This document shows positions 1,611 to 5,836 of a DNA stretch of 5,836 nt, piece after piece. Origin of the DNA: Methylomarinum sp. (lineage in GTDB: Bacteria; Pseudomonadota; Gammaproteobacteria; Methylococcales; Methylomonadaceae). Numbering within the stretch: position 1 is the stretch's first letter; each line of letters opens with the position of its first letter. The stretch lies in assembly GCA_013139755.1 (NCBI GenBank), contig WTAG01000203.1, positions 1 through 5,836 on the forward strand, in the 5' to 3' direction. Under the pieces are notes generated by a model. That model was not told the origin of the DNA, searched no databases, and saw nothing but the letters and a program-made list of their open reading frames with translations. Both the position numbers and the translations under genes were made by a program.

Positions 1611-1647
1611 AAAAAAAGCGCCCTGCCTTGTTTAGGGCGGACGCTTT
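1611..1647 (-). terminator. Rho-independent terminator of the porin gene
   Basis: Read on the minus strand, AAAGCG (1647-1642) and CCCT (1637-1634) pair with AGGG (1624-1621) and CGCTTT (1620-1615), with a small CGGA-complement bulge on one side. The hairpin runs into seven consecutive T residues (A7 at 1611-1617 on the + strand). It starts 48 bases beyond the porin stop codon. On the + strand the stem is followed by a poorer T-rich stretch (TTTAGTTGTTTT), so it may also stop leftover transcription from the Lys-rich gene. Confidence 0.85.
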
Positions 1648-1694: not shown

Positions 1695-2867
1695 TTAGAA
1701 AGTAAGGATCATGTCCATAGAGACAGCAACTTGATCGTTTTCTGCTCCATTGTCGTAAGCAAAACCGGCACCATTAGTATCCGCCCAATCATAACGTACT
1801 TCCGGACGAAATTTTAGCCATGGTACTGGCGAATAATTAACACCTGCTGAAACAGCATAATAGTTGGCGCCAAAGCCTGAAATACGGCCGTCACTGTCGC
1901 TAAACCATTCTGCTCTAAGGCCGGCAGCTAACTGATCATTAATATCATATGTAAGGTATTGGTTAATACCATACCAGTCAGCATCGTCGCCAGGTCCTGC
2001 TCCGTCTTCAGTAATACCTAAGTCGTGTTGGAAAACATAGTGCAGTTTATCGTTGATGTCGTGAGTCAGTACGATACTGTACATGGTGGTATTTTGGTCA
2101 ACAGAGTCGTCGCCGTTCTCACCTGTAATTAAAGATACTGCCACAGCTGTTTTTTCATCATCGCTGGTCCAGTTAGCGCCACCCAGAAAACTCCAGTCAC
2201 CGCCGTTCTCACGGAAGTTGTCCCAGCCAGTGACAGCGCCACCGGATACCGACAAGTTATCATTTACCTGATAGGTTAATAATGCACCGCTATGAGTGAA
2301 TGGTTCTGCATAGAGCATGGTGTAAGCATGCGAATAAAAAAAGTTATCCGGTGCAGTGACCACTTCATAACCGATATTGGTGTAGAAATGACCTAGTTTT
2401 GCAGTCAGGCCGTTACCGATAGGCGCGTAGATTTCTGCATAAGCCTGTGGGAAGGCTACGTCATAGCTGTTAAATTCTTTGTCTAGAATTCGATTGTCCC
2501 AGCCAGTTGCTTGAGTGTTATCAGCGTCGGTACCAAACATAAAATCAACTCGCCCACCTATTTGCCAGTCATTACTACTGGTGTCTACTGCGCGTTCAAT
2601 AAAAAGATTAAGTTGGTTTAATTGAAAGTCATTATTACGATCATTAAAAGAGATGGGGGCGTTTGAATGATGGTCGCCATTATGTGATGCATAGGTGATA
2701 CCTGCTGCTGCCCAACCACCGATCTCAATACCTTGGTCTTTTAAAATCTGTGCGTCATTAACATTTGTACCCGTTAATGATTCTATGGCGCCTTCAGCAT
2801 GAGCGTTAATAGTGGCAGTGAGTAAAACGCTACCCAATAGATGAGTTGTAATAAGATTTCTTTTCAT
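1695..2867 (-). CDS. Outer-membrane beta-barrel porin (BBP2/OmpL-like), predicted nitrogen-regulated
   Basis: This 390-residue protein has a 24-residue signal peptide: KR at 2-3, a hydrophobic core, and an AHA cleavage site before EG. The mature part shows alternating beta-strand patterns, many Gly, Asn, Asp, Tyr and Trp residues, and a C-terminal Phe of the kind recognised by the BAM complex. Strands such as GGWAAAGITYAS, GGRVDFMFGTDAD and KLGHFYTNIGYEVV resemble the putative beta-barrel porin-2 family. The solute is unknown. The mature chain is strongly acidic (by hand count about 53 Asp/Glu against 15 Lys/Arg), which would suit cations, but this is inference. The ATG at 2867 is chosen over an in-frame ATG eight codons upstream (2891) because GGAGA lies seven bases before it and the signal peptide then starts properly. 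The gene runs divergently from glnK-amtB, with its own sigma-54-type promoter and NtrC-like sites, so expression in nitrogen limitation is expected. Confidence 0.85.
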   Translation of the reverse strand: MKRNLITTHLLGSVLLTATINAHAEGAIESLTGTNVNDAQILKDQGIEIGGWAAAGITYASHNGDHHSNAPISFNDRNNDFQLNQLNLFIERAVDTSSNDWQIGGRVDFMFGTDADNTQATGWDNRILDKEFNSYDVAFPQAYAEIYAPIGNGLTAKLGHFYTNIGYEVVTAPDNFFYSHAYTMLYAEPFTHSGALLTYQVNDNLSVSGGAVTGWDNFRENGGDWSFLGGANWTSDDEKTAVAVSLITGENGDDSVDQNTTMYSIVLTHDINDKLHYVFQHDLGITEDGAGPGDDADWYGINQYLTYDINDQLAAGLRAEWFSDSDGRISGFGANYYAVSAGVNYSPVPWLKFRPEVRYDWADTNGAGFAYDNGAENDQVAVSMDMILTF

Positions 2868-2900: not shown

Positions 2901-2916
2901 AGCAATATCCAGGCCA
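2901..2916 (-). promoter_or_regulatory. Sigma-54 (-24/-12) promoter of the porin gene
   Basis: The minus strand reads TGGCCTGGATATTGCT, close to the RpoN consensus TGGCACGN4TTGCA. The GG (2915-2914) and GC (2903-2902) are exactly ten bases apart and the TTGC block is intact. With C at 2902 as -12, transcription would start near 2890, leaving a leader of about 22 bases before the porin ATG. Two NtrC-like sites lie about 96 and 117 bases upstream of that start. Confidence 0.75.
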
Positions 2917-2978
2917 GAATATAATGTGTTGATTTTTATGGAATAAATATGTTGTTAATAAACAAAAGATGTTGCAGA

Positions 2979-2993
2979 AAACCCATTTGGTGC
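2979..2993. promoter_or_regulatory. NtrC-like site, porin-proximal
   Basis: AAACC-CATTT-GGTGC matches the NtrC dyad GCACC-N5-GGTGC at 8 of 10 positions, with the right half perfect. Its centre at 2986 is about -96 from the predicted porin start and exactly 21 bases from the next site, so both would lie on the same face of the helix. Confidence 0.5.
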
Positions 2994-2999
2994 GTTAAA

Positions 3000-3014
3000 G
3001 CACGTTTATGGTGC
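3000..3014. promoter_or_regulatory. NtrC-like site, porin-distal
   Basis: GCACG-TTTAT-GGTGC matches the NtrC dyad GCACC-N5-GGTGC at 9 of 10 positions. It is the better of the pair, centred at 3007, about -117 from the predicted porin start. It is about 400 bases from the glnK start, so it most likely serves the porin, although action at a distance on glnK is possible. Confidence 0.6.
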
Positions 3015-3290
3015 GTGTTTTATATCTGTTGAGCAGGAAAAATGTGTGACTATGATAATCAAGTATAAATGGCTATCAATTGTTGCGGAAGGCATGCCGA
3101 GCTTAAATTAATAAGATAGTTCAATTATCTCTAAAGCCAGTAGGCTTGAAACAAGCAAGGTTAATAACAGCGTTATAAGATATTTATTGTTGATAATTAA
3201 TTTGTAAAATTTTGCTTTCAAAATGAGCGCGTAGGCTGAAAATGTAATAGGAATAAAATTTGTTATAAAACGTAAGGTTATGTCCGTATG
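3015..3290. other. AT-rich intergenic stretch without a recognisable gene
   Basis: This middle part of the divergent region holds no convincing ORF with a ribosome-binding site. It contains the palindrome GGCATGCC (3091-3098), a weak hairpin AGATA/TATCT (3114-3130) and a small hairpin GCTTG-AAA-CAAGC (3144-3156). None is followed by a T tract, so I do not call a small RNA. No clear sigma-70 promoter was found either. Confidence 0.6.
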
Positions 3291-3305
3291 AGAGTTTTAT
3301 GGTGC
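3291..3305. promoter_or_regulatory. Possible NtrC half-site upstream of glnK
   Basis: The right half GGTGC (3301-3305) is perfect and sits in TTTATGGTGC, the same ten bases as in the better porin site at 3005-3014. The left half (AGAGT) does not match. Its centre at 3298 is about -116 from the predicted glnK start and 31 bases (about three helical turns) from the next site. Confidence 0.35.
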
Positions 3306-3321
3306 ATTTTTAATGAGATTG

Positions 3322-3336
3322 GCACCAATTTGGTTT
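3322..3336. promoter_or_regulatory. NtrC-like site upstream of glnK
   Basis: GCACC-AATTT-GGTTT matches GCACC-N5-GGTGC at 8 of 10 positions, with the left half perfect. Its centre at 3329 is about -85 from the predicted glnK start, inside the usual enhancer range. The overlapping TTGGCACC also resembles a -24 element, but the -12 position reads GT, so the enhancer reading is preferred. Confidence 0.5.
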
Positions 3337-3387
3337 GTTTTTTTTGTATTTTTAACTAAAGCCATTAATTTTAAGGGCCTTTAACAT

Positions 3388-3403
3388 TGGCATGTTAAGT
3401 GCT
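3388..3403 (+). promoter_or_regulatory. Sigma-54 (-24/-12) promoter of glnK-amtB
   Basis: TGGCATGTTAAGTGCT fits the RpoN consensus TGGCAYGN4TTGCW with one mismatch in the -12 block. GG (3389-3390) and GC (3401-3402) have the required ten-base spacing. Transcription would begin near 3414, giving a leader of about 38 bases to the glnK ATG. RpoN/NtrC control of glnK-amtB is the known arrangement in enteric bacteria, and that supports the call. Confidence 0.85.
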
Positions 3404-3412
3404 TTCCATTAA

Positions 3413-3790
<378 letters not shown>

Positions 3791-3817
3791 AAATTATAAC
3801 GATTAGAGGGGTAACAA

Positions 3818-5083
3818 ATGGAAGCTTTAAATAAATTGGCCGAGTTAAGTTATGCACTAGATACGTTCTATTTTCTAATGAGTGGCGCATTGGTCATGTG
3901 GATGGCGGCAGGCTTTGCCATGTTAGAGGCAGGCTTAGTTCGTGCTAAAAATACCACGGAAATTCTAACTAAAAACATCGCCTTGTTTGCGATTGCCTGT
4001 GTGATGTACATGCTCTGTGGCTATAACATTATGTATCCGGGGGAAGCGGTAAATAGTGTCTGGCCAGGTATCAGTTTTTTACTGGGTGAAGATAATTCTG
4101 TAGAGGCTGTATTAGGTAGTAAAGGCGAAACATATTACTCAAAAATGTCTGATTTTTTCTTTCAGGTAGTCTTTGTTGCTACAGCAATGTCTATCGTATC
4201 TGGTGCAGTTGCTGAACGAATGAAATTATGGGCGTTTTTAGTCTTTGCAGTGGTTATGACCGGTTTTATTTATCCTTTACAAGGCTACTGGAAATGGGGT
4301 GGTGGCTTTTTAGATGAGCTAGGCTTTTTGGATTTTGCAGGCTCAGGTGTCGTACATTTATGTGGTGCAACAGCAGCATTTGCCGGTGTCTTATTATTAG
4401 GTGCACGTAAAGGTAAATATGGTGCAAATGGTGCAATTCATCCTATTCCAGGATGTAATATGCCATTAGCGACGTTAGGAACATTTATATTATGGTTAGG
4501 TTGGTTTGGCTTTAATGGTGGTTCTGAGTTGAAGATTTCAGATATTGGTGAAGCCAATGCAGTAGCAATGATCTTTGTAAATACCAATGCAGCGGCGGCA
4601 GGTGGTGTCGTAGCTGCTTTATTAACAGCGCAAATGATGTTTGGAAAAGCCGATTTATCAATGACCTTAAATGGTGCTTTGGCAGGATTGGTTGCAATTA
4701 CAGCAGAACCTCTTACTCCAACACCTTTAGTTGCAACCATGATTGGTGCAGTGGGTGGATTAATTGTAGTTTTTTCAATCGTAACCATTGATAAATTGAA
4801 AATTGACGATCCAGTCGGTGCTACCTCTGTACATGGTATCGTCGGTATTTGGGGGCTACTGGCTGTTTGTTTTACAAATCCGGATGCCACGCTTCAAGCA
4901 CAGTTAATTGGTATTGTGACGATAGTCAGTTTTGTCTTTCTAGCGAGTTTATTAACCTGGTATATCATTAAATTAGTGATGGGTATTCGAGTGAGTGAAG
5001 AACATGAATATCAGGGTGTTGATTATTCTGAGTGTGGTATGGAAGCTTATCCTGAATTTACAGATAGCAGCAGGGGGGGGTAG
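3818..5083 (+). CDS. amtB: Ammonium channel AmtB
   Basis: This is a 421-residue Amt/Rh-family inner-membrane channel that forms trimers and passes ammonium into the cytoplasm. It shows about eleven hydrophobic segments between residues 15 and 390. Diagnostic features are AGFAMLEAGLVRAKN (31-45), W160 in YWKWGGG, D172 in DFAGSGVVH (the conserved Asp behind the recruitment site), the pore twin histidines H180 and H339 (SVHGIVG), and GWFGFN (228-233). The cytoplasmic tail RVSEEHEYQGVDYSECGMEAYPEF (391-414, quoted only in part: EEHEYQG and GMEAYPEF) matches the GlnK-interacting tail of this subfamily. There is no signal peptide, unlike E. coli AmtB, and the TM2-TM3 loop (about 74-111) is long. 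The ATG is preceded by AGAGGGG (3805-3811), six bases away. Co-transcription with glnK, 27 bases upstream, is clear. The final codons run through a G8 tract directly before the stop. Confidence 0.96.
   Translation: MEALNKLAELSYALDTFYFLMSGALVMWMAAGFAMLEAGLVRAKNTTEILTKNIALFAIACVMYMLCGYNIMYPGEAVNSVWPGISFLLGEDNSVEAVLGSKGETYYSKMSDFFFQVVFVATAMSIVSGAVAERMKLWAFLVFAVVMTGFIYPLQGYWKWGGGFLDELGFLDFAGSGVVHLCGATAAFAGVLLLGARKGKYGANGAIHPIPGCNMPLATLGTFILWLGWFGFNGGSELKISDIGEANAVAMIFVNTNAAAAGGVVAALLTAQMMFGKADLSMTLNGALAGLVAITAEPLTPTPLVATMIGAVGGLIVVFSIVTIDKLKIDDPVGATSVHGIVGIWGLLAVCFTNPDATLQAQLIGIVTIVSFVFLASLLTWYIIKLVMGIRVSEEHEYQGVDYSECGMEAYPEFTDSSRGG
5073..5080 (+). repeat. Homopolymeric G8 tract at the amtB 3' end
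   Basis: Eight consecutive G residues encode the last part of AmtB (Arg-Gly-Gly) and abut the TAG stop. In an AT-rich genome such a tract stands out and is prone to slippage. Losing one G would extend the protein by a short tail ending at a TGA near 5100; gaining one would extend it to a TAA near 5115. Neither change touches the membrane domain or the PEF tail motif. Confidence 0.8.
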
Positions 5084-5120
5084 TATCCTTAAAAAATTCT
5101 GAGTTTTTAGAATATTAAAA

Positions 5121-5148
5121 ACGGGCGCATGATGTGCCCGTTTTTTTT
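5121..5148 (+). terminator. Rho-independent terminator of glnK-amtB
   Basis: ACGGGCGCA (5121-5129) pairs with TGTGCCCGT (5133-5141) with one G-T wobble around a TGA loop, followed by eight T residues (5141-5148). It begins 37 bases after the amtB stop. An A-run just upstream (5117-5121) would let it work in the opposite direction too. It separates glnK-amtB from the nitrate reductase gene. Confidence 0.93.
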
Positions 5149-5164
5149 GCACCAAGAAAATGCA
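5148..5164. promoter_or_regulatory. NtrC-like site upstream of the nitrate reductase gene
   Basis: TGCACC-AAGAA-AATGCA matches the full NtrC dyad TGCACC-N5-GGTGCA at 10 of 12 positions, with the left half perfect. It starts in the last T of the amtB terminator. The centre at 5156 is about -149 from the predicted start of the downstream gene, near the distance of the far NtrC site at E. coli glnA. A further GGTGT at 5177-5181 may be a half-site, but its partner half is poor. Confidence 0.55.
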
Positions 5165-5278
5165 ATTGTTTAAATGGGTGTTTATTTAGAGATAAAAACC
5201 CTTTGATTATTGTTTGATTTGTTATTTTAACTAATTGATTTTAAATGGTTATTATTTGTTTTTGCTGTTTTGTTAAGT

Positions 5279-5294
5279 TGGCTTGATTACTGCA
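5279..5294 (+). promoter_or_regulatory. Sigma-54 (-24/-12) promoter of the nitrate reductase gene
   Basis: TGGCTTGATTACTGCA matches TGGCACGN4TTGCA except at one position in each block plus the tolerated Y. GG (5280-5281) and GC (5292-5293) are ten bases apart. Transcription would start near 5305, giving a leader of about 70 bases that contains the hairpin at 5312-5341. Confidence 0.75.
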
Positions 5295-5311
5295 TTACAA
5301 ACAATAAGATT

Positions 5312-5341
5312 TCGCTGTTTTTCGTAAGAAAAATCATGCGA
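5312..5341 (+). promoter_or_regulatory. Leader hairpin in the nitrate reductase 5' UTR
   Basis: TTTTTC (5318-5323) and GAAAAA (5328-5333) form a perfect stem capped by GTAA, a GNRA-type tetraloop. The stem extends through TG/CA (5316-5317 with 5335-5336) and TCGC/GCGA (5312-5315 with 5338-5341), with single bulged T residues at 5334 and 5337, giving twelve pairs in total. It starts about seven bases after the predicted transcription start and ends 34 bases before the ATG. No T tract follows. The loop is not the hexaloop with A1 and G4 expected for ANTAR (NasR/NasT) antiterminators, so its role is open: mRNA stability or a pathway-specific leader are possibilities. Confidence 0.5.
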
Positions 5342-5375
5342 CCTAGCTATTAAAAATAAAACGACAATAAACAGT

Positions 5376-5836
5376 ATGTTATTTGGTAGAAACAAAAAAA
5401 ATCCGATAAAAATTGCTGATAAAGGCATAACAAAGTGGAGTTATTCAACCTGCGGCTATTGCTCTACAGGCTGTGCGATTGAAATTGGCACCAACAAAGA
5501 TGGTATTCCTGTGGGCACAAGAGGTGCTGCAGGTGCTGATGTCAATCGTGGAAAGCTTTGTGTTAAAGGTATTTTTGAACATGAAATTTTTGAGTCTTCA
5601 GGGCGAGGTAAAACACCTTTATTGCGTACAAATATTCAAGATGAGTATCAGGAGGCTGGTTGGGATGATGCCTTGGGCAAAATGGCATCGGAAATTAAGC
5701 GCATACAAGAAAAATATGGGCCAGATTCATTTGCCATTGTCTCTACGGGGCAAATTTTAACAGAAGGTTTTTATACTCTGGGTAAACTGGCGCGAGGAGT
5801 AATTGGTACTAATAATTACGATGGTAATACCACCTT
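5376..5836 (+). CDS. nasA: Molybdopterin oxidoreductase, probable assimilatory nitrate reductase NasA (3' partial)
   Basis: The first 153 codons of a large bis-MGD oxidoreductase are visible; full-length relatives have roughly 700-900 residues. Near the N-terminus four cysteines, C26-x2-C29-x3-C33-x28-C62, form the [4Fe-4S] binding domain, and K64 (in CVKG) is the conserved lysine between cluster and molybdopterin. The segment VNRGKLCVKGIFEHEIF and the later GTNNYDGNTT fit nitrate reductases of this superfamily. No twin-arginine signal precedes the cysteines, so the enzyme should be cytoplasmic, as NasA is and periplasmic NapA is not. The neighbourhood (glnK-amtB, sigma-54 promoter, NtrC-like site) favours nitrate assimilation over formate dehydrogenase, which shares the N-terminal domain and remains the main alternative. 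The ATG has no clear Shine-Dalgarno sequence (ACGACAATAAACAGT before it), but no other ATG fits: an in-frame stop lies at 5325-5327. Confidence 0.78.
   Translation, partial: MLFGRNKKNPIKIADKGITKWSYSTCGYCSTGCAIEIGTNKDGIPVGTRGAAGADVNRGKLCVKGIFEHEIFESSGRGKTPLLRTNIQDEYQEAGWDDALGKMASEIKRIQEKYGPDSFAIVSTGQILTEGFYTLGKLARGVIGTNNYDGNTT

What the first reader, a model, noticed from the sequence alone, without database searches (positions are those of the whole stretch)
2901..5376. Three transcription units each carry a sigma-54 promoter plus NtrC-like sites: a compact nitrogen-limitation island
Seen: GG-N10-GC elements at 2901-2916 (minus), 3388-3403 (plus) and 5279-5294 (plus), each 22-71 bases before a real start codon and pointing the right way. 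Also seen: GCACC-N5-GGTGC-like dyads at 2979-2993, 3000-3014, 3322-3336 and 5148-5164, each about 85-150 bases upstream of a predicted start. Known: NtrC and RpoN drive glnK-amtB in enterics. Inference: one starvation signal co-activates porin, ammonium channel and nitrate reduction.
Basis: partly seen in the sequence, partly recalled or inferred. Interest (0 to 1): 0.72.

Follow-up and report, generated by a model that had tools for sequence, protein, structure and literature searches.

The report
Methanotroph nitrogen-starvation porin and ammonium locus
This piece of DNA from a methane-eating bacterium's relative group carries three likely nitrogen-starvation switches, for an outer-membrane pore, an ammonium channel and a nitrate reductase, and comparison with relatives shows that the pore gene comes from one of two seemingly unrelated families that replace each other.

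Summary
The three sigma-54 elements sit where stated and rank 1, 2 and 4 in the window; with a matrix from relatives, 0 of 5000 shuffles had two or more units at the lowest observed score. The window is from a Methylococcales bacterium (Amt 95% identical to L001). Relatives support the glnK and porin promoters strongly: an element before glnK in 48 of 78 loci, NtrC dyads of at least 9/12 in 32 of 44, about 1.8 expected, an element before the BBP2 porin in 13 of 17 orthologues. The nitrate-reductase promoter has moderate support: 5 of 9 orthologues, degenerate in the nearest relative. RpoN is in 10 of 10 and NtrC in 9 of 10 relatives; the window's own genome is not held. New here: the porin beside glnK-amt is BBP2 or a doubled TorF. 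Of 37 genomes 25 have BBP2, 11 TorF, 0 both, 1 neither, with 6-8 switches on the GlnK-Amt tree. Co-activation itself is untested.

The parts
1615..1647 (-). intrinsic terminator of the porin unit
   Evidence: folds at -17.8 kcal/mol, z -4.15, followed by a T run
1698..2867 (-). BBP2 (OmpL-like) beta-barrel porin, 390 aa
   Evidence: PF07642 3.7e-98; predicted 16 strands, pLDDT 70.9, pTM 0.75; Foldseek finds general porins
2901..2916 (-). sigma-54 element of the porin, 33 bases before ATG
   Evidence: 16.7 bits, best in the window; elements of at least 12 bits in 13 of 17 orthologues
2978..2994 (.). NtrC-like dyad, 8 of 12
   Evidence: weak alone
2999..3015 (.). NtrC-like dyad, 9 of 12, 99 bases upstream of the porin sigma-54 element
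   Evidence: 10 of 17 orthologues have a dyad of at least 9/12 at 77-111 bases before their best element
3084..3099 (-). possible second sigma-54-like element on the porin side, 216 bases before ATG
   Evidence: 14.5 bits with the relatives' matrix, 9.8 with the consensus matrix
3301..3337 (.). NtrC-like half sites GGTGC (3301) and GCACC-N5-GGTTT (3322) upstream of glnK
   Evidence: both halves in place in 7 of 9 near relatives
3388..3403 (+). sigma-54 element of glnK-amt, 48 bases before ATG
   Evidence: 14.2 bits, 17.7 with the relatives' matrix; TGGCAT-N6-TGC shared by the window and all 9 relatives aligned
3452..3790 (+). glnK (P-II signal protein)
   Evidence: PF00543; NF007946 just over its cut-off
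3818..5083 (+). amt ammonium channel, marine subtype
   Evidence: TIGR03644, 688 bits; PF00909
5117..5148 (+). intrinsic terminator of glnK-amt
   Evidence: -18.6 kcal/mol, z -4.97, T tail
5148..5164 (.). NtrC-like dyad TGCACC-N5-AATGCA, 10 of 12, upstream of the nitrate-reductase promoter
   Evidence: 0.012 expected in the intergenic bases
5279..5294 (+). sigma-54 element of the nitrate-reductase gene, 81 bases before ATG
   Evidence: 12.9 bits, 12.5 with the relatives' matrix; 5 of 9 orthologues have one of at least 12 bits
5376..5836 (+). N-terminus of a molybdopterin oxidoreductase, probably an assimilatory nitrate reductase; cut by the window end
   Evidence: PF04879, PF00384; the 733-aa orthologue in L113 has LCMASAV (taken as the Nap/Nas-type Mo ligand motif, recalled)

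Best explanation
This is a nitrogen-limitation locus of a Methylococcales methanotroph. When fixed nitrogen runs short, NtrB-NtrC (found in relatives, often in the same locus) would bind the dyads and switch on RNA polymerase with sigma-54 at three promoters: a divergent pair for an outer-membrane porin (BBP2) and for glnK-amt, and a third for a cytoplasmic nitrate reductase. The porin would let ammonium and other small nitrogen compounds through the outer membrane, Amt would carry ammonium through the inner one, GlnK would gate Amt, and nitrate would be the alternative source. Shown: promoter elements above chance, their conservation, separate terminators, gene order. Inferred: binding, induction, what the porin carries. 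In relatives the porin place is filled by one of two families without detectable sequence kinship, BBP2 or a doubled TorF, never found together, so they probably do the same job.
For: Sites above chance with two matrices. glnK elements in 48 of 78 loci, window included. Dyads of at least 9/12 before close glnK elements in 32 of 44, about 1.8 expected; the window is one of the 44, with 8/12. BBP2 elements in 13 of 17 orthologues. Of 23 TorF genes in the same direction as amt (22 lead glnK-amt, L051 follows it) 17 have an element of at least 12 bits, all 17 with a dyad of at least 9/12; shuffles give 2.5% and 0.3%. Other genes of the same loci: 8 of 194 with an element, 3 of 194 with both. RpoN 10 of 10, NtrC over cut-off 9 of 10 relatives. 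Porin, glnA, ntrB and ntrC stand together in relatives. Mutual exclusion 25/11/0/1 in 37 genomes.
Against: No expression data; no own genome. Four of 17 BBP2 orthologues lack an element of 12 bits (L123, L128, L130, L134), and in L131 and L133 it lies 257 and 275 bases from the start. Divergent TorF has an element in 7 of 11 but element plus dyad in only 2 of 11. Thirty of 78 glnK loci lack an element, mostly those with a leading TorF. The nearest relative's nitrate-reductase promoter is degenerate. Window dyads are imperfect. sigma-70-like sites also occur, e.g. 5227-5255 (+) and 3079-3052 (-), at chance frequency (16 found, 17.3 expected).
Confidence: 0.72

Rival explanations
1. Only porin and glnK-amt belong to the NtrC/sigma-54 regulon; the nitrate-reductase site is a decayed or chance element and that gene is driven by sigma-70.
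For: The nearest relative L082 has an 8.3-bit element and no dyad of 8/12; 3 of 9 orthologues have no element. A sigma-70-like site lies at 5227-5255. Adjacency to amt is not conserved.
Against: 12.9 bits with a 10/12 dyad upstream, P 0.0046 in shuffles. 5 of 9 orthologues have element plus dyad of at least 9/12; in two of the three without an element (L086, L087) the gene follows others in the same direction and may share their promoter.
Confidence: 0.25
2. The promoters are sigma-54 dependent but serve another enhancer-binding protein, so the signal is not nitrogen limitation.
For: Relatives have 9 to 70 profile matches to the NtrC model each, receiver-only hits counted. Several promoters lack good dyads.
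Against: Dyads fit the NtrC consensus and are enriched at glnK; porin, glnA, ntrB and ntrC stand together in relatives.
Confidence: 0.12
3. Chance: AT-rich intergenic DNA that happens to hold GG-N10-GC.
For: The bare pattern is common, and one 14-bit match lies inside a gene.
Against: 0 of 5000 shuffles and conservation across relatives.
Confidence: 0.02

Closest known systems
NtrC/RpoN regulon of enteric bacteria (glnK-amtB, glnA-ntrBC)
   Same: glnK-amtB and glnAntrBC are named as members of the NtrC-RpoN regulon (PMC3224663, one passage); site layout recalled
   Different: Here a porin promoter faces glnK, and in relatives a porin stands before glnA-ntrBC. glnA shows no element of 12 bits there (0 of 16, best 11.9), also in the two loci without a porin (L048, L066).
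Herbaspirillum seropedicae nlmA-glnK-amtB operon
   Same: A nitrogen-limitation membrane-protein gene with glnK and amtB; NtrC dependent, 21 times higher under limitation (PMC3023670, passages)
   Different: There one co-directional operon, NlmA thought to be periplasmic; here the porin is divergent and of the BBP2 family. Whether NlmA is TorF-like was not tested.
NasT/ANTAR-controlled nitrate assimilation (leader antitermination)
   Same: One relative (G024; L090 and L119 are the same place) has an ANTAR gene before nas and a terminator-like hairpin in the leader
   Different: The window's leader is about 70 bases and shows no terminator.
General 16-strand porins (BpsOmp38, DcaP, OmpU)
   Same: Predicted 16-strand barrel; these are the top Foldseek hits
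   Different: 11-15% identity; no relative of known structure by sequence at E 0.1.

Membership tests
NtrC/sigma-54 regulon | -24/-12 element with extended consensus near the start | tested here: met
   three units
NtrC/sigma-54 regulon | NtrC dyad upstream | tested here: met
   9/12 (porin), 8/12 (glnK), 10/12 (nas) in the window; enriched in relatives; the glnK one is weak by itself
NtrC/sigma-54 regulon | rpoN and ntrC in the genome | tested here: inconclusive
   10 of 10 and 9 of 10 relatives; own genome not held
NtrC/sigma-54 regulon | induction on nitrogen limitation that needs NtrC and RpoN | not testable with these tools
   no expression data
nlmA-glnK-amtB type operon | membrane-protein gene cotranscribed with glnK-amtB | tested here: not met
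   the porin is divergent, on the other strand; co-directional TorF-glnK-amt occurs in other gammaproteobacteria
BBP2 porin (PF07642) | full-length match over the cut-off, barrel fold | tested here: met
   329 bits against 26.2; 16 predicted strands
Assimilatory nitrate reductase | match over the curated cut-off of a Nas or Nap equivalog | tested here: not met
   the full-length orthologue in L113 scores 509 against 1100 (NasC) and best, 567 against 666, for formate dehydrogenase alpha
Assimilatory nitrate reductase | Nap/Nas-type Cys ligand motif | tested here: met
   LCMASAV in the L113 orthologue (meaning of the motif recalled); the window ends before this place
Assimilatory nitrate reductase | nitrate and nitrite genes alongside | tested here: inconclusive
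   NarK-type transporter in L119, 2.6 bits under its cut-off; nirB- and nirD-like ORFs in L115 and L116 named by eye only

The most novel reading that the evidence does not exclude
Methylococcales keep one dedicated outer-membrane slot for nitrogen starvation, wired to NtrC/sigma-54 beside the ammonium channel or before glnA-ntrBC. It is filled by either of two unrelated porin architectures, a 16-strand BBP2 or a tandem-duplicated TorF, which replace each other in place together with their promoters, at least six times, and never coexist. That implies functionally equivalent nitrogen channels, and some pressure on surface proteins, perhaps phages that use them as receptors, that drives the exchange.
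Probability: 0.4. Interest if true: 0.65.

Novelty: new variant of a known kind. Interest (0 to 1): 0.48.

Why it matters
Ammonium uptake is usually discussed at the inner membrane: a word search of the main text of a 2023 review of prokaryotic ammonium transporters (PMC10433425) found 0 uses of porin or outer membrane. Here an outer-membrane porin is tied by promoter, position and regulator genes to GlnK-Amt across methane oxidisers, which makes a testable claim about how methanotrophs scavenge nitrogen. The either/or use of two porin families is a natural experiment in porin replacement.

Tried and rejected
Own-genome search for rpoN was not possible. Rfam gave nothing in the window. The terminator scan missed the two strong terminators that folding found. 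An attenuator in the window's nas leader was considered and not supported (z -1.31). A conserved island of nas with amt was rejected. Profile kinship of BBP2 and TorF: none (probability 0.3%), but both alignments are shallow. Charge of the porin (53 acidic, 15 basic residues after residue 24) would suit cations, but acidic surface proteins are common in marine bacteria (recalled), so it gets little weight. A porin-glnA operon was considered because glnA has no element of 12 bits (0 of 16); since the two loci without a porin lack it too, this is left as a weak inference. Ten paper searches: in the titles and abstract starts listed I saw none on this porin link; only the listed rows were seen, and most subscription journals are not held.

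Limits of the counts. BBP2 was sought at 1e-40 in 26 genomes, at 1e-20 in 12 handles of which one (G024) repeats, and at 1e-5 in the 11 TorF genomes and G007, none found. The doubled TorF was sought at 1e-20 in the same genomes, so distant or single TorF porins in BBP2 genomes are not excluded. In the second set G037 has two BBP2 matches and G040 and G044 have fragments; G024 has two TorF matches. Many genomes are incomplete drafts and related, so the chance figure of 1.4e-8 overstates independence. On the tree the porin state of L001, L002, L020 and L023 comes from the genome searches, not from the place facing glnK; shuffled states needed as few changes in 51-64 of 500. The matrix and the NtrC consensus are recalled approximations.

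Full report
What is in the window. The end of a UbiH-family hydroxylase (1-873, +), a lysine-rich 156-aa protein without a family (942-1412, +), a BBP2 porin (1698-2867, -), glnK (3452-3790, +), amt of the marine subtype (3818-5083, +) and the start of a molybdopterin oxidoreductase (5376 to the end, +). The nearest records by Amt are named Methylococcales, Methylomonas or Methyloprofundus, several of them from marine animals; L001 is 95% identical. On a GlnK-Amt tree the window pairs with L001 at 99/95 support. No whole genome is held for the window.

The observation. The three sigma-54 elements are at the stated places and strands. With a matrix approximating the recalled consensus they score 16.7, 14.2 and 12.9 bits, ranks 1, 2 and 4; Markov sequence like the 876 intergenic bases holds 0.07 hits of 12 bits or more. 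With a matrix from 47 relatives' glnK sites (57 found, 10 dropped, window excluded) they score 14.4, 17.7 and 12.5, and 0 of 5000 dinucleotide shuffles had two or more of the three units at 12.5 or more. That matrix gives a second porin-side site (3084-3099, -) 14.5, and the porin's P of 0.0046 was computed on it. Gaps to the start codons are 33, 48 and 81 bases. NtrC-like dyads score 8, 9, 8 and 10 of 12; 5 intergenic sites reach 8 (1.07 expected; one of them lies in the amt terminator), 2 reach 9 (0.14) and 1 reaches 10 (0.012). Terminators at 1615-1647 (-) and 5117-5148 (+) fold with z -4.15 and -4.97, so the units are separate.

Comparative test, glnK. Of 78 loci with enough upstream sequence (window included) 48 have an element of at least 12 bits within 250 bases of glnK; random 250-base stretches of these loci reach that in 2.7%. 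Of 44 loci with a close element (window included, at 8/12), 32 have a dyad of at least 9/12 in the 200 bases before it, about 1.8 expected. The window and nine near relatives share TGGCAT-N6-TGC, and 7 of the 9 keep the GGTGC and GCACC halves in place. In other gammaproteobacteria, where TorF leads glnK-amt, the element lies before TorF: of 23 co-directional TorF genes (22 leading, L051 behind amt) 17 reach 12 bits, all 17 with a dyad of at least 9/12; five more score 11.4-11.8, L051 2.9. A further glnK downstream of amt has an element of 12 bits in 1 of 38 rows (L038). Control: 8 of 194 other genes of the same loci have an element, 3 of 194 both.

Comparative test, porin. At 1e-40, 17 of 26 relative genomes have one BBP2 orthologue each. 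Of these 17, 13 have an element of at least 12 bits within 450 bases (257 and 275 bases away in L131 and L133); L123, L128, L130 and L134 do not. Ten of 17 have a dyad of at least 9/12 at 77-111 bases before the best element; for L121 only 82 upstream bases were held. By a stricter rule (250 bases, intergenic gap of at least 100) 10 of 21 BBP2 genes have an element and 6 both, against other genes Fisher 2.2e-7 and 2.9e-5. Divergent TorF: 7 of 11 with an element, 2 of 11 with both.

Comparative test, nitrate reductase. Ten of 26 genomes hold an orthologue of 75% identity or more, and G012 a fragment. Nine have upstream sequence: five have an element of at least 12 bits, each with a dyad of at least 9/12 (L084, L085, L088, L089, L090), one is degenerate (L082, the genome of L001), three have none (L083, L086, L087); in L086 and L087 the gene follows others in the same direction. 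The 733-aa orthologue in L113 carries LCMASAV, the pattern I recall for nitrate reductases, but it passes no curated cut-off shown and scores best against formate dehydrogenase alpha. Next to it stands a 634-645-aa gene in 7 of 8 loci that reach so far, in two pieces in L118; the one in L113 joins a DmsB-like iron-sulphur part to a DmsC-like anchor. Within the flanks held (up to 7 kb) it lies near amt only in the window and in L019, there about 4 kb off.

The regulators. Relatives carry rpoN (10 of 10) and an NtrC over the curated cut-off (9 of 10); in the tenth, G002, the contig with glnA ends inside ntrB. Gene order ties them to the porin: ntrC-ntrB-glnA-TorF facing glnK-amt in L003, L004, L008, L009, L031, L033, L036 and L037; the same with BBP2 in L059; BBP2-glnA-ntrB-ntrC in L138 and L139, and BBP2-glnA-ntrB in L140. 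glnA shows no element of 12 bits (0 of 16, best 11.9), ntrB does in 6 of 13. It is tempting to read glnA from the porin promoter, but the two loci without a porin (L048, L066) lack a glnA element too, so this is weak.

Two porins, one place. Facing glnK stands BBP2 in 18 loci (window included) or a doubled TorF in 11. Over 37 genomes: 25 with BBP2, 11 with TorF, 0 with both, 1 (G007, a 2.2-Mb draft) with neither; no BBP2 at 1e-5 in the 11 TorF genomes or G007. On a GlnK-Amt tree of 33 rows the state changes 8 times, at least 6 forced by well-supported branches. In L014 (TorF) and L019 (BBP2) the flanks match; the match breaks near the porin's end and 73-79 bases before glnK, so exchange (or very fast divergence) covers the porin and its promoter. 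L059 and L036 show the same, 59 bases before glnK. Profile comparison finds no kinship. Models differ: BBP2 has 16 strands (pLDDT 70.9, pTM 0.75), TorF 12 plus 12 (pLDDT 73.1, pTM 0.50). BBP2 resembles general porins at 11-15% identity among the first hits.

Known precedents. H. seropedicae nlmA-glnK-amtB is NtrC dependent and 21 times higher under limitation (PMC3023670, passages). A 2025 survey of sigma-54 regulons has 0 uses of porin, Methylococc or glnK in its main text and reports nitrate reductases among predicted targets (PMC12316311, passages). A Methyloprofundus paper showed no such porin in the passages seen (PMC8788690); nor did passages of PMC3916325.

Verdict. The regulation is of a known kind and very likely real for porin and glnK-amt, likely for the nitrate reductase. 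The new part is the porin as a fixed but exchangeable member of the nitrogen-limitation locus of methanotrophs. What it carries, and whether all three units rise together, remains to be measured.

Noticed in passing
L085:2010-2130, L090:1255-1400, L119:4749-5339: Long leaders with a terminator-like hairpin between sigma-54 element and nitrate-reductase start. In G024 (L090, L119) an ANTAR regulator gene stands just before; G019 (L085) has no ANTAR match. 5 of 16 genomes searched have one.
   Followed up: partly
L004, L008, L009, L031, L048, L066, between glnA and ntrB: ntrB has its own sigma-54 element of at least 12 bits in 6 of 13 cases, glnA in 0 of 16.
   Followed up: partly
L003, L004, L008, L009, L012, L014, L031, L033, L036, L037, L043: The TorF porin facing glnK is 458-496 aa long and, in the two scanned, shows two Gcw_chp stretches: a tandem duplication. 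Co-directional TorF ORFs elsewhere are 204-346 aa.
   Followed up: partly
L113:4268-6175: 635-aa fusion of a DmsB-like ferredoxin part and a DmsC-like membrane anchor next to the 733-aa nitrate-reductase-like gene (7 of 8 loci): perhaps a quinol-fed assimilatory nitrate reductase.
   Followed up: partly
942-1412: 156-aa lysine- and alanine-rich protein with a hydrophobic N-terminal stretch, no Pfam or NCBIfam match.
   Followed up: no
5073-5080: Run of eight G just before the amt stop codon, a possible slippage site.
   Followed up: no
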